64,000 nucleotides of DNA. It comes from Elusimicrobiota bacterium (GTDB lineage: Bacteria; Elusimicrobiota; Elusimicrobia; Elusimicrobiales; Elusimicrobiaceae). Within the stretch, counting starts at the first letter, position 1, and every line of letters starts with the position of its first letter. Shown one piece after another: positions 1,032-38,693 of the stretch. The position numbers were made by a program, and so were the translations under genes. The DNA lies in the NCBI GenBank assembly GCA_009778915.1, contig WRFH01000005.1, positions 31,688-95,687 of the forward strand. Reading direction: 5' to 3'. The notes under the pieces were generated by a model. The model did not search any database. It was not told the origin of the DNA and was given only the letters and a program-made list of their open reading frames with translations.

Positions 1032-1040
1032 TTAATTTAA

Positions 1041-1234
1041 GATTGCAGAATGTTCCTAACCCTCTGCGCGTTTGCCAAACAGCCGGCAAACCCTGCGGGC
1101 TGTGTAATTTTTATAAAATTTTAATTTTTTTGCTCCTTACGTAGGCTCCGCCTGTCGGCTACGCGCGTCGCAAAGAAAATTAAAATTTTCTAAAAATTAC
1201 TTTGCGCACAGCGGGTTAGGAACATTCTGCAATC
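1041..1234. repeat. ~190-bp composite palindrome in the gap leader
   Basis: The outer arms (1041-1062 and 1213-1234) are 22 bp of perfect complement. An inner AT-rich pair (about 1100-1130 and 1172-1203) is almost perfect, with further small hairpins inside: GTTTGCC/GGCAAAC near 1070-1090 and CGTAG/CTACG near 1140-1165. It fills the sequence between the gap ribosome-binding site and the predicted promoter at 1233-1260, so transcripts would start at the edge of the palindrome and carry it whole. It is either an inserted repeat or a structured leader; nothing coding was seen in it. Confidence 0.8.
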
Positions 1235-1260
1235 TATACTTATTTATATATATTCTACAA
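1233..1260 (-). promoter_or_regulatory. Candidate gap promoter
   Basis: On the minus strand there is TTGTAG (1255-1260), a 16-bp spacer and TATAGA (1233-1238). It is the only good promoter-like pair between gap and the terminator at 1283-1350. Confidence 0.45.
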
Positions 1261-1282: not shown

Positions 1283-1350
1283 GCCGTTTTCGTACAAATA
1301 AAAAAGGTCTGCCAGAATTGGCAGACCTTTTTTATTTGTACGAAAACGGC
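1283..1350. terminator. Very long perfect terminator hairpin
   Basis: The arms 1283-1314 and 1319-1350 are 32 bp of perfect complement around the 4-nt loop GAAT, with A/T tracts inside the arms so that it can work in both directions. It directly abuts the stop codon of the lipoprotein gene at 1351 (minus strand). The hairpin is much longer than the usual 7-12 bp stem. Confidence 0.9.
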
Positions 1351-14045: not shown

Positions 14046-14112
14046 TTTTACGACTGAGACGATTCCAAATAAGATTTGACAGAAGTTTGAAAAACCGAAG
14101 GATTTTTGCATT

Positions 14113-14244
14113 TTCTCCCCTTTGTAAGGGGAGTACCGCCGCAGGCGGGGAGGGGTTTTGAACCGGGGGACAGGTTTATTTATATCGGGGTTGGTTCAAA
14201 ACCCTTCCCCCGCTTCGCGGGTACTTCCCTTATAAAGGGAAGAA
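14113..14244. repeat. Repeat family 2, copy 1 (inverted hairpin doublet)
   Basis: It begins with the hairpin CTCCCC/GGGGAG plus TACC, followed by GGCGGGGAGGGGTTTT. It ends with AAAACCCTTCCCCCGC, a GCGGGTACTTCCC segment and a closing CCCTT/AAGGG hairpin. The ends are inverted relative to each other. The second copy is at 57101-57233. REP/BIME-like. It fills the gap between the Cys-rich gene and the trigger factor terminator, and no gene is seen there. Confidence 0.8.
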
Positions 14245-14280
14245 AATTATATTGTCAACTAATTATCCCACGTTGGAATA

Positions 14281-29979: not shown

Positions 29980-30064
29980 GGGCGGGTGGCGGAACTGGCA
30001 GACGCGTACGGCTCAGGACCGTATGAGTGTATAACTCTTAAGGGTTCAAGTCCCTTTCCGCCCA
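29980..30064 (+). tRNA. tRNA-Leu (anticodon CAG)
   Basis: 85 nt, class II. Acceptor GGGCGGG with CCGCCC, anticodon loop CTCAGGA (CAG), long variable arm, T-loop TTCAAGT. The CCA end is not encoded (CCCA then TAAA), unlike the other three tRNAs here. Confidence 0.96.
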
Positions 30065-30065
30065 T

Positions 30066-30115
30066 AAAATAAAAAGGCTGAATGATAAGAAACTATCATT
30101 CAGCCTTTTTATTTT
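30066..30115 (+). terminator. tRNA-Leu terminator, 22-bp perfect stem
   Basis: Arms 30066-30087 and 30094-30115 are perfectly complementary, loop AGAAAC, and the second arm ends in a T-rich run. Confidence 0.9.
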
Positions 30116-30158
30116 TGTTTTTTATAACGCGCATACATCTGCGCGTTATAAAAAACAA
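30115..30158. repeat. 19-bp perfect inverted repeat
   Basis: Arms 30115-30133 and 30140-30158 with loop TACATC, starting exactly where the tRNA-Leu terminator ends. No T-run clearly beyond it. Confidence 0.85.
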
Positions 30159-30159
30159 T

Positions 30160-30304
30160 CCCCAAATCTTTGGCCGAATTTGAATTTTTAATGACGAGAG
30201 CACACACCGTGTCCGCGCGGGAACGGAAAACGGCCCCGCGCTACCCGCACCAGTGTGCCCGTCGTCATTAAAAATTCAAATTCGGCTCAAATCTTAGGGG
30301 CCCC
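30160..30304. repeat. tRNA-linked hairpin element, copy 1
   Basis: A ~145-bp inverted repeat. The arms contain 25 bp of perfect complement (about 30173-30197 and 30260-30284) with CCCC and GGGG at the ends. The apex, about 30201-30260, reads CACACACCGTGTCCGCGCGG, then a variable loop, then CCGCGCTACCCGCACCAG and TGTGCC. It is almost identical to the apex at 38583-38652, while the arms differ. Right edge is GGGGCCCC. No coding potential seen. Confidence 0.8.
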
Positions 30305-30341
30305 CAAAAAAATTGCGCAAAAAACGGCACGCGCAATTTTT
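30305..30341 (-). terminator. Candidate terminator of the Crp/Fnr gene
   Basis: AAAAAATTGCGC and GCGCAATTTTTT around AAAAAACGGCAC; followed by T-run on the minus strand, 24 bp after the stop at 30365. Confidence 0.6.
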
Positions 30342-30364
30342 TAACAACATGCACGGCATTTAAA

Positions 30365-31039
30365 CTATGAAGTCAGTTTCCTTACATCTGATATTTCAAA
30401 ATTATTTTTACGGTATTTTATAATTCCTTCCGCGCGCAGGGCGGCAAGCTCGCGCGAGAGCGCCGCGCGGTTGACGCATAAATATTCCGCCATGGCGGCC
30501 CTGTCATGCGGGATTTTAAAGCGTAAAACCCCGCCGTTTAACTTCGTCTGACGCAGAAGATACGCGGAAATTTTTGCGCGCGTGGAGGGTTTGGAAACTA
30601 TTTCAATTTTGTTTTTCAGCTCCGCCCCGTAAAGGCTTACATGTTTAAGCAGGTTTGCCAAAAATAAGTCTCCGGCGGCGCTTTTCGGCGCGGAAAGAAG
30701 CGCTTTATAATTGATAAACATAACCGTGCAGTTTTCCTGCGCGGAGACCGATAAAGAATCATTCTGCGTTCCGGCGCAGACAAGCAGCTCAGCAAACAGC
30801 CTGCCTGGTCCGGCAATTTCAGTTTTTGCCTTTTTGCCGAAAATATCCAAATCTGATACTTCCGCAAGTCCTTCCAAAACTATTCCAAACTCAGCCGGGA
30901 CGCTCCCGGGCGCTATTATTACGTCCCGCGCGGCATAATTTTTAACTCGTGCGGCACCGCGTAATAAATTTGCCATATCCTGCTTAAAAATTCCGGCAAA
31001 AAGCGGGATATTGGAGAGGAAAAGTATATATTTTTCCAT
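30365..31039 (-). CDS. Crp/Fnr family transcription regulator
   Basis: A 224-residue regulator with an N-terminal cyclic-nucleotide-binding-type beta-roll (about 10-120), a dimerisation helix and a C-terminal winged HTH (about 150-215, DRAAMAEYLCVNRAALSREL as recognition region). No Fnr-type Cys cluster is seen, so it is not an oxygen-sensing iron-sulfur Fnr. The ligand could be heme, a nucleotide or another small molecule. Upstream lies a perfect 16-bp palindrome at its predicted transcription start, suggesting autoregulation. AGAGG precedes the ATG. Confidence 0.88.
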   Translation of the reverse strand: MEKYILFLSNIPLFAGIFKQDMANLLRGAARVKNYAARDVIIAPGSVPAEFGIVLEGLAEVSDLDIFGKKAKTEIAGPGRLFAELLVCAGTQNDSLSVSAQENCTVMFINYKALLSAPKSAAGDLFLANLLKHVSLYGAELKNKIEIVSKPSTRAKISAYLLRQTKLNGGVLRFKIPHDRAAMAEYLCVNRAALSRELAALRAEGIIKYRKNNFEISDVRKLTS

Positions 31040-31057
31040 AAAAACCTCTAAAAATTA

Positions 31058-31084
31058 GGTTGCAATTGCAACCGATATTATAGC
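31058..31084 (-). promoter_or_regulatory. Crp/Fnr gene promoter with 16-bp palindromic operator
   Basis: Minus strand: extended -10 TGCTATAAT (TATAAT about 31077-31082), followed at +1 by the perfect palindrome GGTTGCAATTGCAACC (31058-31073). A protein bound there would block transcription start. Confidence 0.65.
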
Positions 31085-31109
31085 AAATTTTATGTTTGTA
31101 TAGATGAAT

Positions 31110-31335
31110 AAGACTCCGTCCTCCTATTTTGTCCCTCTCCCCTCCGGGGGAGAGGGCACGGGTGAGGGGGACGTTACACAATATGCGCCGTAAGTCTGTA
31201 AATCTATTCAAGACATCGCCTTTCCGGGGCCGATAAGGGGAAAACCTAAGTTTATGAACGACACATCAATATTGTTGTGTACATAATGTGTACACACCCC
31301 CTCACCCCGGCCCTCTCCCCAGGAGGGGAGAGGGA
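31110..31335 (-). repeat. Repeat family 1, copy A (inverted hairpin doublet)
   Basis: Two CCCTCTCCC/GGGAGAGGG hairpins in inverted order (31132-31157 and 31311-31335), each with a TGAGGG or CCCTCACC side sequence. They enclose a conserved middle that includes CCGGGGCCGATAAGG (about 31224-31238) and ATGAACGACACATCAATATT (about 31254-31273). The CTCCGTCCTCC end faces the Crp/Fnr gene. Matches 47891-48108 in inverted orientation, and 35819-36006 more distantly. Fills most of the 31040-31407 gap; no gene seen. Confidence 0.85.
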
Positions 31336-31360
31336 GAACTCTCCCAGGATAATGAAAATA

Positions 31361-31394
31361 AAAAAAGCCCGTCCTGAAGGACGGGCTTTTTGTT
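31361..31394 (-). terminator. Terminator of the rpsP-rplS operon
   Basis: AAAAAGCCCGTCCT pairs with GGACGGGCTTTTT around GAA, 14 bp after rplS. Confidence 0.92.
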
Positions 31395-31407
31395 TATTTG
31401 TATATCG

Positions 31408-31854
31408 TTATTTGGTTTCGGCCGGTTTTTCTTCCAGTTTTGTTTCTTCAACCGGGGCGGGGGCGGCTTCGGCTTCCGTCTGCGCGCCGTCTTTGTCGGA
31501 CGCGGCGGTGGATTTGCCTACGTTTATGTCTTTTAGTCTGGCCGCTTTGCCGGACAGGTCTTTGATGTAATTAAGTTTCGCGCGGCGTACTTTGCCGGAT
31601 TTCAAAACCTCAATGCTTTCCACGCGGGGGGAGTGCAGCGGGAAAATTCTTTCCACGCCTACGCCGAAGGAAATTTTGCGCACCGTAAAAGTTTCGCTTA
31701 TTCCGCTGCCTTTGCGCGCTATCACCAGCCCGTCAAAAGCCTGCAGCCTTTCGTTATCGCCCTCAACAACTTTCACCATAACTTTAACCGTGTCGCCGGC
31801 TTTAAAGTCAGGTATATTGGTTTTAAGGTTATGTTTTATGTCATTTATGTTCAT
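31408..31854 (-). CDS. rplS: Ribosomal protein bL19
   Basis: Large-subunit protein at the 30S-50S interface. The 148 residues show [49 protein letters not shown] and [11 protein letters not shown]-terminal tail of about 35 residues rich in Ala, Glu and Pro goes beyond the usual length of about 115. Last gene of the rpsP-khpA-trmD-rplS cluster. Confidence 0.97.
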
Positions 31855-31862
31855 AACAACTG

Positions 31863-32552
31863 TTATCTCCGTTTCTTTCCTGTTGCTGAGAGGAGCAAAT
31901 CAGGTCTAAATTTTTTTGTGATTTTTAAAGCTTCGCCGCGGCGCCAATTCTCTATTTCTTTATGGTTGCCGCTTAAAAGCACGGCGGGCACTTTTTTGCC
32001 GCGCCAGACTTCGGGCCGCGTGTACTGCGGCGCTTCCAGCAAATTATTTTCAAAACTTTCGTTTTCCGCGACTCCGGCTTTTTTAAAGGTGCCGGGCAGT
32101 AAACGCGTAATCGCGTCTATCATTACGACGGCCGCCGGTTCTCCGCCGGTCAAAATGAAATCGCCCAAAGAAATTTCCAAATCAAAATAAGGGTAAACCC
32201 TCGCGTCAACGCCCTCATAATGACCGCAGACAAAAACCAGATGTTTCTTTTTCGCAAGTTTTTTAGCCAGAGACTGGGTAAAAACTTTGCCCCGCGGACT
32301 TGTGTATATTACGACGCTGCCTCTTTTTTTAAGCTTTTTCACAGCCTGATAAAGCGGCTCCGCCTTCAGCAGCATGCCCGCGCCGCCGCCGTAAGGCCGG
32401 TCGTCGATAGTCTTGTGATTGTCAGACGTAAAAACGCGCGGGTTTGTGAAATTTATTTCAACAACTCCCTCTTTCCTCGCGCGGCCCGTAATGCTCGCGG
32501 CAAGCGGCCCGTCGACAATTTCAGGCAGAGATGTAATTACGTCAATCTTCAT
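31863..32552 (-). CDS. trmD: tRNA (guanine-37-N1) methyltransferase
   Basis: Makes m1G37 in tRNAs reading CNN codons and so prevents frameshifting. The 229 residues have the trefoil-knot SPOUT motifs: [12 protein letters not shown] (about 50-61), [20 protein letters not shown] and the SAM-site [17 protein letters not shown]. Overlaps khpA by 1 nt (TGATG). The usual neighbour rimM is absent between khpA and trmD. Confidence 0.97.
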
Positions 32553-32779
32553 CAGTCTTCGATTTTCAAAAAAACTTTTTTATTCTGCTTTGAGCCAGCC
32601 GCGCTTAACACCGTGCGCATGGCCCTGATAATGCAGCCGTCTTTGCCTATAACTTTACCTTTGTCCTCCGGCGCGACTTTGGTGGACAGGTAAATGCTCT
32701 CGCCCTCTATGCGTTCCGTCATATTAATTTCTTTGCCAAGAGTAAGGGATTTGAGCATAAATATTGCCATCTCCTTCAT
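32552..32779 (-). CDS. khpA: KH-domain RNA-binding protein
   Basis: A 75-residue single type II KH domain (GKVIGKDGCIIRAMRTVLSAA, the GxxG loop included) of the KhpA/YlqC family, which binds RNA with KhpB and affects cell division and translation in other bacteria. Placed between rpsP and trmD as is common. GGGAGGG precedes the ATG. Confidence 0.93.
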   Translation of the reverse strand: MKEMAIFMLKSLTLGKEINMTERIEGESIYLSTKVAPEDKGKVIGKDGCIIRAMRTVLSAAGSKQNKKVFLKIED

Positions 32780-32797
32780 AAAACCCTCCCGCGCAAA

Positions 32798-33046
32798 TTA
32801 TTTTGCGGCGGCTTTTTTGGCAAGCGCGGCCACGGTGGGCGACGCCTGCGCGCCTGTTTTTACCCAATAATCGTATCTTGCTTGGTCAAGCTTAATCTGG
32901 TCGCCGGCTTTGGGATTGCAGGGATTGTATGTGCCTAAAACTTCCTTAGCCTGGGCGCCCGGGGCGCTTTTCTTTTCTACTGCGATGATTCTGTACTGAG
33001 GCTGCTGCTTTTTTCCGACTCGTTGTAATCTGAGAACTACTGCCAT
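32798..33046 (-). CDS. rpsP: Ribosomal protein bS16
   Basis: Small-subunit assembly protein. The 82 residues starting MAVVLRLQRVGKKQQPQYRI are typical; the C-terminus is Ala/Lys-rich. The start is set at 33046, with AGGAGA 8 nt upstream; a GTG at 33082 would add 12 residues without similarity to S16. Confidence 0.96.
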   Translation of the reverse strand: MAVVLRLQRVGKKQQPQYRIIAVEKKSAPGAQAKEVLGTYNPCNPKAGDQIKLDQARYDYWVKTGAQASPTVAALAKKAAAK

Positions 33047-33091
33047 TTTTTTTCTCCTGGGGAGTGACGGCTTGGCCGTCACACGTTATTT

Positions 33092-33769
33092 TTAAATTAT
33101 TTTTTTAAAATCTTTTATTGCTGTTTCTATACCTGTTTCCGCGCCGAAAACCGCGTAACCCGCCACCAGAGCGTCTGCGCCGGCTTTTACGGCGCGCGGC
33201 GCGGTTTGCGCGTTTATGCCGCCGTCAACTTCCAGCCAGATTTTGCGGCCGCTCTCTTTTATCAGACGGCGCGCGGCGGTAATATTTTTTTCGCCGGCGG
33301 GTATATACGATTGTCCGGCGAAGCCGGGTTCCACCGTCATAACCAAAATCAAATCTATAATGTCAAGGTAAGGTTTTATTTTTGCCGCGTCAGTATGCGG
33401 TTTTATTGAGACGCCGCAGCATAGCCCCAAGTCTTTTATTTGTTTTAAGACCGCATAAGTATCATCCTTGCTTTCAATATGCACGGTAATGTTGTCCGCG
33501 CCCGCTTTGAAAAAAGGCAAAATAAACTTACTTGGATATTCTACCATTAAATGGAGGTCAAGGGGAAGAGCAGTTTTGCCTTTCAAACTCTTGCATACCG
33601 CTGGGCCGAAAGTTAAATTGGGCACAAAATGGCCGTCCATAATGTCCAAATGCAGCCAGTCAGCGCCGGCGTTTTGCACGGCGGTCACCTGTTCGCCAAG
33701 CCGCCAGATGTCAGCCGACAATATTGACGGCGCCAAAGCGGTTTTGCCTGAAGGTAAAGGAAAAGACAT
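33092..33769 (-). CDS. rpe: Ribulose-phosphate 3-epimerase
   Basis: Interconverts ribulose 5-phosphate and xylulose 5-phosphate (pentose phosphate pathway). 225-residue TIM barrel with LAPSILSADIW, the metal-site HLDIMDGHFVPNLTFGP (about 40-56), DLHLMVEYP, MTVEPGFAGQSYI and EVDGGINAQT. One-base overlap with the PASTA gene upstream. Confidence 0.97.
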   Translation of the reverse strand: MSFPLPSGKTALAPSILSADIWRLGEQVTAVQNAGADWLHLDIMDGHFVPNLTFGPAVCKSLKGKTALPLDLHLMVEYPSKFILPFFKAGADNITVHIESKDDTYAVLKQIKDLGLCCGVSIKPHTDAAKIKPYLDIIDLILVMTVEPGFAGQSYIPAGEKNITAARRLIKESGRKIWLEVDGGINAQTAPRAVKAGADALVAGYAVFGAETGIETAIKDFKKII

Positions 33770-34767
33770 TAAAATTCTCTCTCTCTCACTAAAATGCCGT
33801 TTATATAAATTCTGAAAGCGGTTGAATTCCCGTAAGGTATATCCATGTCTATTTTGGAGCCCGGGTCCTTCATCTCGTTCAAAATATCCTTTTCGGTTCC
33901 GTCGCTGTTTACCAGCGTTATGCGGACGTTGCTCTGGTTTTTGCCCTGCGCCATTTCATAGTGCAGGCGGTAAGATTTTTCGTCCGCCGAGACGGGGCGG
34001 CGGCTGACTATGACATTCACCGTGTCCCCTTTGTTAACCTGCATGTCGGCCGCGGGGGACTGGTCTGTTATCACGCCGTTGGGGAATGCGGAGGACGCGT
34101 CTTCCGTCACGTTAAGATTAATATCATTTGCCGTGGCCCAGGCGCTGATATCCGTTAATTTTTGCATGCGGAAAGAGGGCATAAGCATAACGTTCTGCGG
34201 CGGCGGTCCGTTGGAAACCACAAGAGTCACCACCGAACCCTTTACCAGTTTGCTGCCGTTGGCCGGATTTTGCGCGGAGACTGTGCCTTTGTCATAATCA
34301 TTTGAATAAGCGTTGTCAACCGTGCCCGTTACAAGACCGTTCTGACGTATTAAAAGCTGCGCGTTTCTTAAAGATTGTCCGACGAGATTCGGCAGCGTCA
34401 CTTCTTCTTCGCCTTTGCTTATCCAGACTCTGATGACGCGGCCTTCGCGCACGACGGTGCCGGCGGAAGGCAGCTGGCGGACGATAGTGTCCGGCGCGGC
34501 TTTAGCGTCAGCTTCGTCGCCAGCTTTTTTTAAAGTTAAATTGCCGGCCGCCAGAAGGTCCAGCGTTTCCGGCAGGGTTTTGTATTTTAAATCAGGCACG
34601 GTAACTTCTTTGCGCGTGTGGATAAGCGCGTCAAGCGCCCAGTCCATTGAAAAATATATAAGACCGGCGAAAAGTATCAGCGTTACTAAAACGAAAGCTA
34701 TTACTTTGCTCGGTCTGCCCTTTTTGGATTTGTTTTTAGAGGAAACTTCATCAAAAAATTCGTTCAT
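33769..34767 (-). CDS. PASTA-domain membrane protein without kinase
   Basis: A 332-residue protein with a short basic cytoplasmic N-terminus, one transmembrane helix (about 22-42) and three PASTA domains outside: about 54-118 (VTVPDLKYKTLPETLDLL), 120-186 (VTLPNLVGQSLRNAQLLI) and 190-256. A C-terminal domain of about 75 residues follows. PASTA domains bind peptidoglycan fragments; here no Ser/Thr kinase or penicillin-binding domain is attached. It lies between fmt and rpe. A cell-wall sensing or binding role is likely but not shown. Confidence 0.88.
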   Translation of the reverse strand: MNEFFDEVSSKNKSKKGRPSKVIAFVLVTLILFAGLIYFSMDWALDALIHTRKEVTVPDLKYKTLPETLDLLAAGNLTLKKAGDEADAKAAPDTIVRQLPSAGTVVREGRVIRVWISKGEEEVTLPNLVGQSLRNAQLLIRQNGLVTGTVDNAYSNDYDKGTVSAQNPANGSKLVKGSVVTLVVSNGPPPQNVMLMPSFRMQKLTDISAWATANDINLNVTEDASSAFPNGVITDQSPAADMQVNKGDTVNVIVSRRPVSADEKSYRLHYEMAQGKNQSNVRITLVNSDGTEKDILNEMKDPGSKIDMDIPYGNSTAFRIYINGILVREREF

Positions 34768-34782
34768 TATATTATTCCGTTG

Positions 34783-35793
34783 TCAGTAAAAAATAATCTG
34801 CGCCGGTTTCAACCCCCGGCCGTTTAAAAAGTCCGCCGCGCGCATGTCGTTTTTGCCGGCGGGGCGCAGCGTGTTTACGTATAAAAAACCGTCTATACAT
34901 TTTACTAATATTCTGCCGTCCTTATCAACAATAATCACCGCGCCGGGCCGGAAATCGCCGGCGGGCGGCGTTTGGCAAAGCGAAGTTTTTATTATTTGGA
35001 CGGTGTCTTTGCCGGACGGCGTTTCAATAAGCGCGCGCGCGTTAGGGCCGCAGGCCAGGCCGCGCACGCGGTTGTGGATGGTGACGGCGGACATATTGTT
35101 GAAATCTAAAATCGTGTCTTCCTTTTTTATGACGGGCGCGGACGACGGGCGCGGGAAATCCTCCAACTCCACGTTAAGCGGGTACATGGTGTCTTCACTG
35201 ACGCGGGATGCCATTTTTATTGTCTGCGGAGTTTTTTTAATCTGGCCGGTTCGGATATCCTCTATAACTTCCGCTAAAACTTGGCAGCCGAGCGGGATTA
35301 GTTTTGCAAATAACGTCCGGCAGTCATCGTCGGGCGATACCGGCATCGCGCGCTTTAAAAATACCGGCCCGGTGTCCATGCCTTTATCTATCCAGAACGC
35401 GGTCACCCCGGTTTCTTTAACTCCGGCAAAAAGGCTGTGCTGCACGGGCGCCGCGCCGCGGAAAAACGGCAGCAGCGAAAAATGTATATTGATTATACCG
35501 AGTTTCGGGATATTTATGACGTGTTCTTTGATAAACTGCCCGTAAGCCACGGCGACGCCGTAATCCGCGCCGGCGGCTTTTATTTCAGCTTCAATATCGG
35601 TAATTTTTTCAGGCGATAAGACTTTTAAGCCGAGCGCCGCCGCGCGTTCTTTGACGGGACAGGGGGAAATCTGCATGCCGCGGCCGCGCGGCCTGTCGGG
35701 CTGTGTGACGACGAGGGCGATATCGGTATATTTATGTAAAACTTCAAGGAACGGCACCCCGATTTCCGGCGTACCCAAAAAAATTGTTTTCAT
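34783..35793 (-). CDS. fmt: Methionyl-tRNA formyltransferase
   Basis: Formylates initiator Met-tRNA with 10-formyl-THF. The 336 residues have IFLGTPEIGVPFL, the catalytic region IINIHFSLLPFFRGAAPVQ (Asn/His of the family) with TAFWIDKGMDTGPV, and a C-terminal OB-like domain. The start is placed at 35793 (MKTIFLGTPE); a GTG at 35832 would lie inside a repeat hairpin. No clear Shine-Dalgarno; TAATAT or TATATA lies directly upstream, so this mRNA may also be leaderless. No def gene next to it. Confidence 0.94.
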   Translation of the reverse strand: MKTIFLGTPEIGVPFLEVLHKYTDIALVVTQPDRPRGRGMQISPCPVKERAAALGLKVLSPEKITDIEAEIKAAGADYGVAVAYGQFIKEHVINIPKLGIINIHFSLLPFFRGAAPVQHSLFAGVKETGVTAFWIDKGMDTGPVFLKRAMPVSPDDDCRTLFAKLIPLGCQVLAEVIEDIRTGQIKKTPQTIKMASRVSEDTMYPLNVELEDFPRPSSAPVIKKEDTILDFNNMSAVTIHNRVRGLACGPNARALIETPSGKDTVQIIKTSLCQTPPAGDFRPGAVIIVDKDGRILVKCIDGFLYVNTLRPAGKNDMRAADFLNGRGLKPAQIIFY

Positions 35794-35818
35794 TATATAT
35801 ATATTACTAAATTTAATA

Positions 35819-36006
35819 CTCCCTCTCCCCACCGGGGGAGAGGGCCGGGGTGAGGGGGAAGGTGCACAAAATAGCGTTGTTATAAAATTAGTTATTCCGC
35901 TTTTGCTCTACGGCGATATAATTTGTGTACATGATGTGTACACACCCCCTCACCCTATCCCTCTCCCCCGGAGGGGCGAGGGGAAAAGATATGACGGGGA
36001 GAGGGT
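35819..36006 (-). repeat. Repeat family 1, copy C
   Basis: CCCTCTCCCC/GGGGAGAGGG hairpin with GGTGAGGGGG at the left. GTGTACATGATGTGTACAC, then CCCCCTCACC and a second CCCTCTCCC hairpin, at the right. The middle has diverged from copies A and B. Its left end faces fmt, 26 bp before the start codon, the same orientation as copy A to its gene. No gene seen in the 35794-36092 gap. Confidence 0.75.
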
Positions 36007-36047
36007 AAGAATAATGAGGAAGATTTTCTTTTTACTTCTGACAAAAT

Positions 36048-36083
36048 AAAAACCCGCCCGGCTTTGGAGCCGGGCGGGTTTTG
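36048..36083 (-). terminator. Terminator after the SWIB gene
   Basis: AAAACCCGCCCGGC against GCCGGGCGGGTTTT, loop TTTGGA; 10 bp after the stop. Confidence 0.92.
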
Positions 36084-36092
36084 TTTTAAAGC

Positions 36093-36347
36093 TTATTTAA
36101 GATGATTGCTTATATATTTGCTCATTTCAAACATGCTGATTTGGGCTTTGCCGCCGAAAATAACTTTCAAGGTAGCGTCGGCGTTTATCATTCTTTTATT
36201 TTTAGAGTCCTGAAGTTTGTTCTTTTTGATGTAGTCCCACATCTTTTTGACAACTTCCGTCCTGGGCAGCGGTTTGGAACCTACTACGGCCGCCAATTCG
36301 GCGCTCGGCGTTAACGGCGCCATAAATTTTGCGTTTGCTTTTGCCAT
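36093..36347 (-). CDS. SWIB/MDM2-domain protein
   Basis: An 84-residue protein that consists almost only of a SWIB domain: MAPLTPSAELAAVVGSKPLPRTEVVKKMWDYIKKNKLQD, then KNKRMINADATLKVIFG and the last helix MFEMSKYISNHL. SWIB domains are best known from eukaryotic chromatin remodelling factors; in bacteria they occur in chlamydiae and a few other groups as small proteins or topoisomerase tails. A chromatin- or DNA-related role is likely but unproven. It is monocistronic, with GGAG upstream and its own terminator. Confidence 0.93.
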   Translation of the reverse strand: MAKANAKFMAPLTPSAELAAVVGSKPLPRTEVVKKMWDYIKKNKLQDSKNKRMINADATLKVIFGGKAQISMFEMSKYISNHLK

Positions 36348-36451
36348 ATTACTTAATCTCCTTTCTTTCTAAAAACTTTGGGCCGCGTGTCTTAGCGCCC
36401 CATTGAATAGATTATATACTATTTTGCTGCTGTTTATGCAAGCTTAATTTT

Positions 36452-37657
36452 TTACCACGTCCTTTTTACGGTTTTGCCGTCTATGACAATCTCGTCGGGG
36501 GAAGACTTGTCCAGCGCCCATCTTATCCTGCGCGCGCCTTCTATAACTGTATCCCGCGCCGCGCAGTAACTTATACGGGCGTAGCCTTCCATGCCGAAAG
36601 CTTCTCCGGGCACGACGGCGACATACGCTTTTTCCAGTAAAAATTTCGCCAGTTCCATAGAGCTCAAGCCGTAATAGTTAAAATCAACCAGCGTATAAAA
36701 GGTGCCGCTCGGCACGGTTATGCCCAAACCTTTTATCTGTTTTAACTCGTTGATAAGCGCGTTGCGGTTTTCTTCAAGCTGCTTGCGCAAATCTTCGACG
36801 CAGCTCTGGTCGCCCATAAGCGCGGCCGCGGCGGCGGCTTCCGACAAATCGGAATTGCATGACGTTGTCTGCGACTGAAAACGGCCCATGGCGGCTATTA
36901 AATCCCTGTTTTCGCTTATAGCCCAGCCTATACGCAGGCCGGTTAACCCGTAAACCTTGCTTACGCCGTTGACGACGATAAGGTTTTGCCCGTCCTTCGC
37001 GTATTTGAACGGCGACGCGCAGGTTTTGCCGTCGAAGGTCAGTTTGTGGTAAATATCGTCCATGATGAGGAAAATTTCTTTTTTCTCGCAAAATTCGACG
37101 ATATTTTTTATAAACTCTTCTTCAAAAACCGTGCCGGAAGGATTGACGGGGGAGTTTAATATTATCACTTTTGTTCTGCGCGACACCTGGTTTTGTATAT
37201 GTTTAAAAGAAACTTTTAAATCTTTGCCGGGCTTGACGGGCACCGGGATTGCGCCGGCCATTATCACCATTTCCGGGTAGCTTACCCAGTACGGCGCCGG
37301 GAAAAGGACTTCTTTGCCCGGATTGATTGTGGCAAGCAGAGCGTTGTAAACCGCTTGTTTCGCGCCGCTTGTAATAATAATGTTGGACGGCGCCACGGTT
37401 TTGCCGTAGTTGTCTTTTGTATATTTTATGACGGCGTTTTTGAGGTCCGTAGTGCCGGTTGAGGGGGAATATTTTATTTTATGCGTGTTTGCTTTTGCGA
37501 TAATCGCGTCCACCGCCGATTGCGGCGCCGGATATTCCGGCTCCCCGCCGCCGAGGTGGATTATCGGCAAACCTTGCTTTTTTAAAGCGTTTGCCTGCGC
37601 GTTGATTCTTAAGGTAGGCGAATCGCCTACCGCCGCGGAAAGTTTGCTCAGTTTCAT
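36452..37657 (-). CDS. Class I pyridoxal-phosphate aminotransferase (aspartate type)
   Basis: A 401-residue fold-type I aminotransferase. IHLGGGEPEYPAP, ITSGAKQAVYNAL, NSPVNPSGTVF and the PLP-lysine motif NGVSKVYGLTGLRIGWA (Lys near 238) are all present, as is the C-terminal Arg in RISYCA. Closest in pattern to the Igamma-type aspartate/prephenate aminotransferases. Exact substrate uncertain. No operon partner on either side. Confidence 0.9.
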   Translation of the reverse strand: MKLSKLSAAVGDSPTLRINAQANALKKQGLPIIHLGGGEPEYPAPQSAVDAIIAKANTHKIKYSPSTGTTDLKNAVIKYTKDNYGKTVAPSNIIITSGAKQAVYNALLATINPGKEVLFPAPYWVSYPEMVIMAGAIPVPVKPGKDLKVSFKHIQNQVSRRTKVIILNSPVNPSGTVFEEEFIKNIVEFCEKKEIFLIMDDIYHKLTFDGKTCASPFKYAKDGQNLIVVNGVSKVYGLTGLRIGWAISENRDLIAAMGRFQSQTTSCNSDLSEAAAAAALMGDQSCVEDLRKQLEENRNALINELKQIKGLGITVPSGTFYTLVDFNYYGLSSMELAKFLLEKAYVAVVPGEAFGMEGYARISYCAARDTVIEGARRIRWALDKSSPDEIVIDGKTVKRTW

Positions 37658-37737
37658 TATATATCTCCGTAAAATGTGCGTAAGTACGCCATATTTTACA
37701 AATTTTTTGAAAAGCTGCGGCAGGTTCCCTAAGATTA

Positions 37738-38280
37738 TCAGCGCGCGGCCTGAAAATCTTTTACGGCCTGGACATTATTTTTACTCAGCGCCGTCAGTTT
37801 ATCCGCCAGAAATTTGTGGATGTCAACCACCGCAATGTTATAATTGTCATACACGCCGGAATCAACATCTACAGTTTTAAGCGCGTTAAGCTCAACGGCG
37901 GCATCATAAATTTCGCGCTGAAGGTCTTCAAAATCCTGCTGCGTTTTATCCGTCTTATCCTTAACAGCGGCAAGGCGTTGTGCAATTTTGTCTGCCCGCG
38001 CGGCCGCTTCTTCCGCGTGTGCTTTGTTGGATGTATTTAATGAATCCAAATCCTCATACGATATAAGTTTACCGCCCGGATTGAAATTCTTATAATATTT
38101 AAGTACATAACCGAGCTGTTCAAATTCATTATCAAGGTTGGAAATAAATGGATTTAGCGCAAGCTGGAGTTCAGATTGTTGCGCCTGCGCCGCTGGCGCC
38201 GCGGAAACGGAGGTCTGAGCCGCGCCGCCCAGGGCCAAAAAGAGAAACATTATAAAAAACGCCGGTATTTTTATCTTCAT
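37738..38280 (-). CDS. Exported helical protein of unknown function
   Basis: A 180-residue protein: signal peptide MKIKIPAFFIMFLFLALGGAAQ, then a mostly alpha-helical, charged body, probably coiled coil around HAEEAAARADKIAQRLAAVK. Start set at 38280 (GAGG 8 nt upstream) rather than at 38328. Function unknown. Confidence 0.75.
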   Translation of the reverse strand: MKIKIPAFFIMFLFLALGGAAQTSVSAAPAAQAQQSELQLALNPFISNLDNEFEQLGYVLKYYKNFNPGGKLISYEDLDSLNTSNKAHAEEAAARADKIAQRLAAVKDKTDKTQQDFEDLQREIYDAAVELNALKTVDVDSGVYDNYNIAVVDIHKFLADKLTALSKNNVQAVKDFQAAR

Positions 38281-38394
38281 AAGGACCTCGCTATAGTCAA
38301 TATTAAATATTTTCTCTCCGCGCTGCAAGAGCCAAAAGACCTAAAATCGTTATAGGTCCTATTTGCGCCGCATTCGGCGGAATTCTATTTTTAG

Positions 38395-38400
38395 TATAAT
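38395..38400 (+). promoter_or_regulatory. tRNA-Ser promoter -10
   Basis: TATAAT ends 9 nt before the tRNA 5' end. Confidence 0.55.
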
Positions 38401-38409
38401 TGACTTTAT

Positions 38410-38497
38410 GGAGAGGTGTGTGAGCGGTTGAAACAGCAGGTCTCGAAAACCTGTATGCCGCAAGGCATCGTGGGTTCGAATCCCACCCTCTCCGCCA
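38410..38497 (+). tRNA. tRNA-Ser (anticodon CGA)
   Basis: 88 nt with encoded CCA, class II. Acceptor GGAGAGG/CCTCTCC, anticodon loop CTCGAAA (CGA), long variable arm, T-loop TTCGAAT. Confidence 0.97.
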
Positions 38498-38553
38498 TTT
38501 TGACAGGCGCGCAAAACGGAAATTCCGTTTTGCGCGCCTGTCAAAATGGCGGA
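38491..38553. repeat. 63-bp perfect palindrome reaching into tRNA-Ser
   Basis: 31-bp arms around a single central base. The first 7 bases (TCCGCCA) are the 3' acceptor strand and CCA of tRNA-Ser. No T-run follows, so it is not a standard terminator. Confidence 0.88.
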
Positions 38554-38556
38554 GTA

Positions 38557-38693
38557 CCCCATGCTTTTGAGTTTATTTGAATTTTTAATTACTCCGTCAC
38601 ACACCGTGTCCGCGCGGATACAACTTCCGCGCTGCCCGCACCAGTGTGCCTCCGCAATTAAAAATCCAAATAAACTCAAAAGCATGGGGCCCC
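38557..38693. repeat. tRNA-linked hairpin element, copy 2
   Basis: ~137-bp inverted repeat; arms 38557-38590 and 38656-38689 match at 33 of 34 positions. The apex CACACACCGTGTCCGCGCGG, then a shorter loop, then CCGCGCTGCCCGCACCAG and TGTGCC, is nearly identical to copy 1 at 30160-30304. The right edge is again GGGGCCCC. Arms unrelated outside GAATTTTTAAT. It fills the gap after tRNA-Ser together with ~100 bp in which nothing else is seen. Confidence 0.8.

What the first reader, a model, noticed from the sequence alone, without database searches (positions are those of the whole stretch)
29980..38693. Hairpin element with a conserved apex and variable arms, behind two tRNA genes
Behind tRNA-Leu(CAG) and tRNA-Ser(CGA) lie inverted repeats at 30160-30304 and 38557-38693. 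Their apex of about 60 bp is nearly identical (CACACACCGTGTCCGCGCGG, then CCGCGCTnCCCGCACCAG), both share GAATTTTTAAT next to it, and both end in GGGGCCCC. Yet the outer arms are unrelated between copies and complementary within each copy. Covariation of this kind over long arms with a fixed apex looks like selection for a structure (RNA or cruciform), or a mobile palindromic unit that copies flanking DNA. No coding function seen.
Basis: seen in the sequence. Interest (0 to 1): 0.7.

Follow-up and report, generated by a model that had tools for sequence, protein, structure and literature searches.

The report
Mobile DNA hairpins behind tRNA genes
The two hairpins are copies of a family of non-coding DNA hairpins scattered in dozens of versions through some Elusimicrobiota genomes, present at a site in one species and missing at the same site in the next, with a folded shape that is kept while most letters change; they likely spread as folded single strands handled by a still unknown enzyme, and may warn that paired letter changes need not mean an RNA.

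Summary
The copies at 30160-30304 and 38557-38693 belong to a large, patchy hairpin family: 32 places in the window's genome, about 64 in its sister species, and matches in 19 of 149 genomes drawn across the phylum. Helices vary yet pair (21 of 30 consensus pairs change on both sides), while a pyrimidine mismatch, an inner loop and one or two one-base bulges recur, the bulges mostly on the 3' arm (212 against 24), so the fold has a polarity. Both window copies are missing from the same tRNA loci of the sister species, and seven sister-species copies are missing from the window's genome. No Rfam family fits. Integron integrase, IS200/REP transposase and reverse transcriptase do not track the carriers. 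Wobble pairs are not favoured, which speaks against an RNA. One arm, and probably two more, was rewritten from its partner, the mark of template switching, so part of the covariation is probably mutational. Best reading: a non-autonomous mobile element recognised as a folded single strand, most likely ssDNA, by an unidentified enzyme. The tRNA link holds for one subfamily, not for the whole family.

The parts
30160..30304 (+). Copy 1 (tRNA subfamily S1), CCCC-arm-apex-arm-GGGGCCCC
38557..38693 (+). Copy 2 (S1); right arm is the exact complement of the left over the outer 23 nt, so the family's C.T mismatch is lost
30200..30258 (+). Conserved apex of copy 1: inner helix, inner loop, variable terminal loop
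29979..30065 (+). tRNA-Leu(CAG) upstream of copy 1
38410..38497 (+). tRNA-Ser(CGA) upstream of copy 2
30066..30115 (+). Perfect 22-bp hairpin behind tRNA-Leu, terminator-like; the sister species has a different hairpin at this place
30115..30158 (+). Second perfect hairpin (19 bp) abutting copy 1; absent with copy 1 at the sister-species locus
38490..38554 (+). Perfect 32-bp hairpin abutting copy 2; left arm begins inside the tRNA-Ser gene
30307..30342 (+). Third hairpin (12 bp, A/T-rich foot) behind copy 1
1099..1205 (+). Third, divergent copy of the family (core hairpin)
1040..1062 (+). Left outer arm of the third copy (23 nt, perfect)
   Evidence: extends it to 30 nt with 2 mismatches
1213..1235 (+). 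Right outer arm of the third copy (23 nt, perfect)
33060..33105 (.). Site without a copy here that carries another subfamily's copy in the sister species (G001 C17:599-705)

Best explanation
The two hairpins are copies of a non-coding palindromic element family that is present or absent at the same sites in sister species, and that is likely mobile as a folded single strand (most likely DNA) which an enzyme that we did not identify would recognise through its shape. SHOWN: high and patchy copy number; presence/absence at orthologous sites, at two of them with the outer arms as part of the unit; mostly intergenic placement (46 of 57 copies by a crude ORF call); helices that vary but pair; a C.T mismatch, bulged bases (T, then G or T) and an inner loop recurring at fixed places, the bulges on one arm; one arm rewritten to the exact complement of an unchanged partner arm. 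INFERRED: that the shape is what a recombinase or transposase reads; that the single strand is DNA exposed on the lagging-strand template (65 of 96 copies or clusters have their sense strand on the G-rich strand); that pairing is kept both by selection on the shape and by replication template switching; that the subfamily in question favours sites behind tRNA terminators; that absence at a site means insertion elsewhere and not precise loss.
For: Copies: 32 distinct places in G000 (59 two-strand matches), about 64 in G001 (95 matches, my hand count), carriers and non-carriers within one genus, 19 of 149 genomes over the phylum at E 1e-4. Site occupancy: of 31 G001 copies examined, 13 had both flanks in the G000 stretches: 6 sites have no copy in G000, 6 have one, 1 is unresolved. 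Both window copies are missing from the G001 tRNA-Leu(CAG) and tRNA-Ser(CGA) loci; a further site in the window is empty where G001 is filled. At G001 C111:20797 and C111:8988 the extra DNA includes the outer arms. Shape: 30 pairs, 21 with changes on both sides, 90.9% of cells paired against 72.7% shuffled and 26.9-55.0% slid (further pair types were reached by 55 of 500 shuffles); 212 one-base bulges on the 3' arm against 24 on the 5' arm in 134 distinct copies, first bulge T in 100 of 111, second G in 52 of 87. In the distant family f10, 9 of 10 copies read have the first bulge and 4 of 10 the second. Arm rewriting: G001 C71:6617 against C122:39, C58:10 and C61:11317 (identical left arms; 5-6 right-arm differences, each towards the complement); G000 C2:72794 and window copy 2 are consistent with it. 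Polarity to GC skew.
Against: No enzyme was found: Y1 transposase, integron integrase over cut-off and reverse transcriptase (present in carriers G012 and G020, absent in five others) do not track the carriers, so the mobilising step is unseen; f10 carriers were not searched for enzymes. No consistent target-site duplication. Absence at a site could be precise loss. Bulge counts lean on the orientation chosen by the model, and copies are related, not independent. The second bulge is missing in 47 of 134 copies, and S1 mostly lacks it. Orientation within contigs is significant in G010 (p 0.0006) but not in G000 (0.15) or G001 (0.09); the pooled GC-skew bias (p 0.0007) uses skew as a proxy, is not significant in G001 alone (p 0.28) and borderline in G000 (0.05), and gene-strand bias runs the same way (36:21). 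G001 orientation to the upstream gene is 16:5 sense, against 10:10 in G000. The nine S1 copies behind tRNAs are all in the tRNA's sense, which an RNA reading would also predict. G001 is a fragmented assembly, and copy C71 lies at a contig end.
Confidence: 0.6

Rival explanations
1. A structured RNA: the hairpin is transcribed (for S1 from read-through behind tRNAs) and its fold is selected as RNA.
For: Strong covariation; all nine S1 copies behind tRNAs are in the same sense; G001 copies lean to sense (16:5).
Against: No Rfam match but tRNAs at gathering score; non-standard pairs in the arms are mostly pyrimidine-pyrimidine, with G-U 64 and A-C 113 over three genomes, whereas RNA helices tolerate G-U; terminator-like hairpins stand between tRNA and S1; 10:10 orientation in G000; presence/absence between species.
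Confidence: 0.15
2. A MITE: a deletion derivative of a DDE transposon moved through terminal inverted repeats.
For: Non-coding, palindromic, high copy, mostly intergenic, empty sites.
Against: Ends differ between subfamilies and copies (CCCC, GCTTCC, AGATTnCAG, ATAGCAG), no consistent target duplication, bulges with a polarity are not a MITE trait (recalled). DDE families were not searched.
Confidence: 0.12
3. Fixed host sequences (extended terminators or chromosome-organising repeats, BIME-like) kept by selection and made palindromic only by template switching.
For: Placement behind genes and terminators; arm rewriting; orientation follows contigs in G010; long perfect hairpins also occur without a recognised core (window 1283-1350, G001 C51:35014).
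Against: Patchy between species of one genus, empty sites, different subfamilies at the same site (G000 C1:37942 against G001 C58:12334).
Confidence: 0.1
4. Purely mutational palindromes, with no element: local quasipalindrome correction at unrelated places.
For: Template switching is known to homogenise arms and invert spacers (PMC8604942 abstract; PMC8794818 abstract), and marks like both are seen here (C71 arm rewritten; L010 arms exchanged).
Against: Shared core, apex and recurring bulges between loci and families.
Confidence: 0.03

Closest known systems
REP sequences / REPtrons (TnpA_REP, RAYT)
   Same: High-copy intergenic palindromes; a folded single strand with a bulge read in a strand-specific way (PMC8266576, abstract and passages)
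   Different: REPs are 20-50 nt behind a GTAG-type tetranucleotide; the cores in G000 are 93-145 nt with long variable arms, and the Y1 transposase is missing in carriers such as G010
Integron attC sites
   Same: Shape-read folded hairpin with extrahelical bases on one strand, an unpaired spacer and a variable terminal structure (PMC8946536, passages)
   Different: No integron integrase over cut-off in the f1 carriers searched; no gene cassettes seen; helix longer than in attC (recalled)
Quasipalindrome template-switch mutation
   Same: Arm homogenisation and spacer inversion (PMC8604942 abstract; PMC8794818 abstract)
   Different: Here it acts on a dispersed repeat family with presence/absence differences, and at least one bulge persists in 124 of 134 copies
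MITEs and other non-autonomous elements
   Same: Non-coding, palindromic, present or absent at orthologous sites
   Different: No shared ends, no consistent target duplication, no parent found (DDE parents not searched)

Membership tests
REP/RAYT | 20-50 nt palindrome with 5' GTAG-type tetranucleotide (PMC8266576) | tested here: not met
   Cores 93-145 nt in G000; no shared GTAG at the foot seen by eye in flanks
REP/RAYT | Cognate Y1 HUH transposase in the genome | tested here: not met
   PF01797 absent in G005, G010, G012, G016, G020 (92-99% complete) and G000 (66%); one in G001. f10 carriers not searched
Integron attC | Integron integrase (TIGR02249) | tested here: not met
   1 of 38 genomes over cut-off, G044, which has no copy; sub-threshold hits, taken as Xer-like, in all 38. 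f10 carriers not searched
Integron attC | Extrahelical bases on one strand of the folded site | tested here: met
   212 against 24 one-sided bulges in 134 copies; analogous, not shown homologous, orientation set by the model
Integron attC | R-box/core recombination motif at the foot | not tested
   -
MITE | Common terminal inverted repeats | tested here: not met
   Ends differ by subfamily and copy
MITE | Target-site duplication | tested here: inconclusive
   Six empty sites printed; none gives a consistent duplication, two of them have diverged or other DNA at the place
MITE | Parent DDE transposon | not tested
   -
Group II intron or other RT element | Reverse transcriptase in carriers | tested here: not met
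   PF00078 absent in G000, G001, G005, G010, G016; present in G012 and G020
Known structured RNA | Rfam match at gathering score | tested here: not met
   Only the four tRNAs in the window; of 39 matches at E up to 5 only tRNA reaches its cut-off
Template-switch correction | Arm changed to the complement of an unchanged partner arm | tested here: met
   G001 C71 against three near-identical copies; one clean case

The most novel reading that the evidence does not exclude
A phylum-wide class of mobile elements that carry no gene and no fixed end sequence: they are recognised and moved purely as a folded, polar single-stranded DNA shape (bulges on one arm, one inner loop) by a machinery that is none of the ssDNA movers tested (Y1 HUH, integron integrase, reverse transcriptase), and they survive because template switching keeps re-pairing their arms, in effect using quasipalindrome correction as their own repair.
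Probability: 0.3. Interest if true: 0.85.

Novelty: new variant of a known kind. Interest (0 to 1): 0.62.

Why it matters
If right, shape-read ssDNA mobility is wider than IS200/REP and integrons, and its enzyme can be sought by comparing carrier and non-carrier Elusimicrobiota genomes. It also gives a case in which very strong covariation, often taken as proof of a functional RNA, sits in a DNA repeat whose arms are partly rewritten by replication; covariation screens of bacterial intergenic DNA should test for this.

Tried and rejected
Rfam: nothing but tRNAs over cut-off. RAYT/IS200, integron integrase and RT (present in 2 of 7 main carriers) as drivers: not supported in the f1 genomes searched; IS110, DDE and Xer were not tested as drivers. 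Exact apex in viral contigs and a 261-bp query in plasmids: no match. Idea that outer arms are inverted copies of target DNA: rejected for two loci, because the empty site lacks both arms. Idea that all long perfect hairpins are ordinary terminators: not upheld, since 5 of the 8 perfect hairpins with arms of 27 bp or more in G000 C1, C2, the window and the G001 stretches abut an S1 core. G-U test for RNA: negative; recurring mismatches are counted many times in it, so it is rough. A search for more pairs with one arm kept and the other changed gave 25 pairs; only those with C71 are a clean rewriting. Papers: elusimicrobi, palindromic, repeat, intergenic; 3 papers, listing only; Elusimicrobium, genome, inverted repeat; none; 2 papers, listing only; subscription papers are not held, so absence from print is not claimed.

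Full report
WHAT WAS CHECKED. The two inverted repeats are at the stated places, behind tRNA-Leu(CAG) and tRNA-Ser(CGA), with the shared apex and terminal GGGGCCCC. Each folds as one long hairpin (-79.0 and -65.9 kcal/mol). The apex has four exact matches in the 1.27 Mb genome, none for the reversed control. The sister species G001 has two more exact copies and two with 2 mismatches; by two contig lengths G001 is public record JAIRUU01, Elusimicrobium sp. Ehx436_bin12. One search listed 6 of 60 genomes at up to 3 mismatches; the weak matches that I read (L005, L013) have no arms, and L007-L009 were not read.

THE FAMILY. A covariance model from 8 copies and a broader one from 39 (A3) show that these copies are one subfamily (S1) of a large family. 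The broad model gives 59 two-strand matches, that is 32 places, in G000 and 95 matches, about 64 places by my hand count, in G001. Carriers and non-carriers occur within one genus (G010, G012, G016, G020 against G003, G008, G018; match counts there include both strands, and the number of candidates scored is capped). Nineteen of 149 genomes over the phylum have a match at E 1e-4 or better, six of them in a distant family f10. The window holds a third copy at 1099-1205. In G010 copies often stand in head-to-tail arrays.

THE SHAPE. In 39 aligned copies 21 of 30 consensus pairs change on both sides, and 90.9% of cells pair against 72.7% after shuffling and 26.9-55.0% when slid; the number of further pair types alone was reached by 55 of 500 shuffles. 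Stacking each left arm on the complement of its right arm shows what recurs: a small loop near the foot, a C.T mismatch below TTTTG, a bulged base after TTTG, a bulged base after ATTTT, an inner loop, a 4-bp GTAC-like helix and a free terminal loop. In 134 distinct copies there are 212 one-sided bulges on the 3' arm and 24 on the 5' arm; 109 copies have the first bulge, 87 the second, 72 both and 10 neither; the first is T in 100 of 111 and the second G in 52 of 87. S1 itself mostly lacks the second bulge, and its B-type arms (including window copy 2) lack the first. In f10, 9 of 10 copies read have the first bulge and 4 of 10 the second. Orientation was set by the model, so the excess describes a consistent polarity and is not an independent test.

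SITE OCCUPANCY. G000 and G001 are mostly 80-90% identical in the matched flanks. Of 31 G001 copies in fetched stretches, 13 have both flanks in the G000 stretches: six sites lack a copy in G000, six have one, one is unresolved. Of the six empty ones, one (C43:8180) has other DNA in G000 and one (C4:24352) a diverged right side. From the G000 side 8 of 32 copies have both flanks in the G001 stretches: six are the occupied pairs just named, two (C1:34166, C1:35096) were not resolved. At C111:20797 the whole palindrome including its 32-bp outer arms is extra; at C111:8988 it lies, by eye, in a stop/start overlap and appears to leave both genes readable. The two copies of this finding are both missing behind the same tRNAs in G001, and copy 1 also in G002 (the G002 tRNA-Ser locus was not resolved). 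A further site in the window (about 33064) is filled in G001. Two of the six occupied pairs carry different subfamilies (C1:37942/C58:12334 and C1:451237/C54:16257). By a crude ORF of 57 copies are intergenic; of the 11 that overlap a listed ORF, ten overlap short ones (91-131 aa) and one a 275-aa frame at C1:300799 that I did not resolve.

WHY ARMS VARY YET PAIR. Four G001 copies share the same left arm, but one (C71:6617) has a right arm that is the exact complement of its own left arm where the others keep the family mismatches. G000 C2:72794 and window copy 2 are consistent with the same rewriting, and L010 has its arms exchanged. Arm homogenisation and spacer inversion by template switching are described for yeast (PMC8604942, abstract) and template switching for hairpins in RNA genes (PMC8794818, abstract and first part of the introduction). 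It cannot explain everything, because at least one bulge, which it would erase, persists in 124 of 134 copies; selection on the shape is therefore inferred as well. C71 lies at a contig end, so assembly error is possible there; the two G000 cases lie inside long contigs.

THE NEIGHBOURING HAIRPINS. Eight perfect hairpins with arms of 27 bp or more were found in G000 C1, C2, the window and the G001 stretches; five abut an S1 core. In three of these five the arm runs 6, 8 and 11 nt into the tRNA gene (coordinates), so a little flanking DNA appears to have been copied in inverted form. In the sister species the tRNA-Leu terminator hairpin has quite different but again pairing arms.

RNA OR DNA. 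Only tRNAs reach an Rfam cut-off. Non-standard pairs in the arms are mostly pyrimidine-pyrimidine; G-U counts 64 and A-C 113 over three genomes. Orientation to the upstream gene is 10:10 in G000 and 16:5 in G001 (pooled p 0.12). Orientation to GC skew is 22:10, 19:12 and 24:9 (p 0.05, 0.28, 0.01), pooled 65:31, p 0.0007, which would put the polar strand on the lagging-strand template if skew marks replication; a permutation by contig is significant in G010 only. A folded ssDNA is thus favoured but not shown.

ENZYME. Y1 transposase is absent in G000, G005, G010, G012, G016 and G020 and single in G001. Integron integrase over cut-off is found in 1 of 38 genomes, a non-carrier. Reverse transcriptase is absent in G000, G001, G005, G010 and G016 and present in G012 and G020. 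G000 is only 66% complete, so its own absences mean little; the 92-99% complete carriers count. The f10 carriers were not searched for enzymes.

tRNA LINK. Ten of 32 G000 copies and 6 of 31 G001 copies examined lie within 250 bp of a tRNA, and 9 of 10 S1 copies stand behind one. In f10 three of five copies read in G082 follow what look like tRNA genes by eye.

Noticed in passing
window 1283-1350: Perfect 32-bp hairpin with terminator-like centre, no recognised family core beside it
   Followed up: partly
window 14110-14247, 31129-31338, 35821-35982: Other long imperfect inverted repeats (84, 84, 81% complementary), the last two sharing a CCCTCTCCCC...GTACACACCCCC type; they look like a second dispersed repeat family
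   Followed up: no
G000 C1:330294-330366 (L192): Perfect 34-bp hairpin followed by what looks by eye like an S1 remnant that the models did not list
   Followed up: no
G010 contigs, L104-L123: Head-to-tail arrays of the hairpin with roughly 34-bp iteron-like subrepeats between them (by eye)
   Followed up: partly
L010 (G001 C101:27027): Left arm equals the complement of a B-type right arm and right arm nearly the complement of an A-type left arm: an element with exchanged, mixed arms
   Followed up: partly
G001 C66:497-865 (L071): Single IS200-type transposase match of G001, on the same short contig as the empty tRNA-Ser(CGA) site
   Followed up: no
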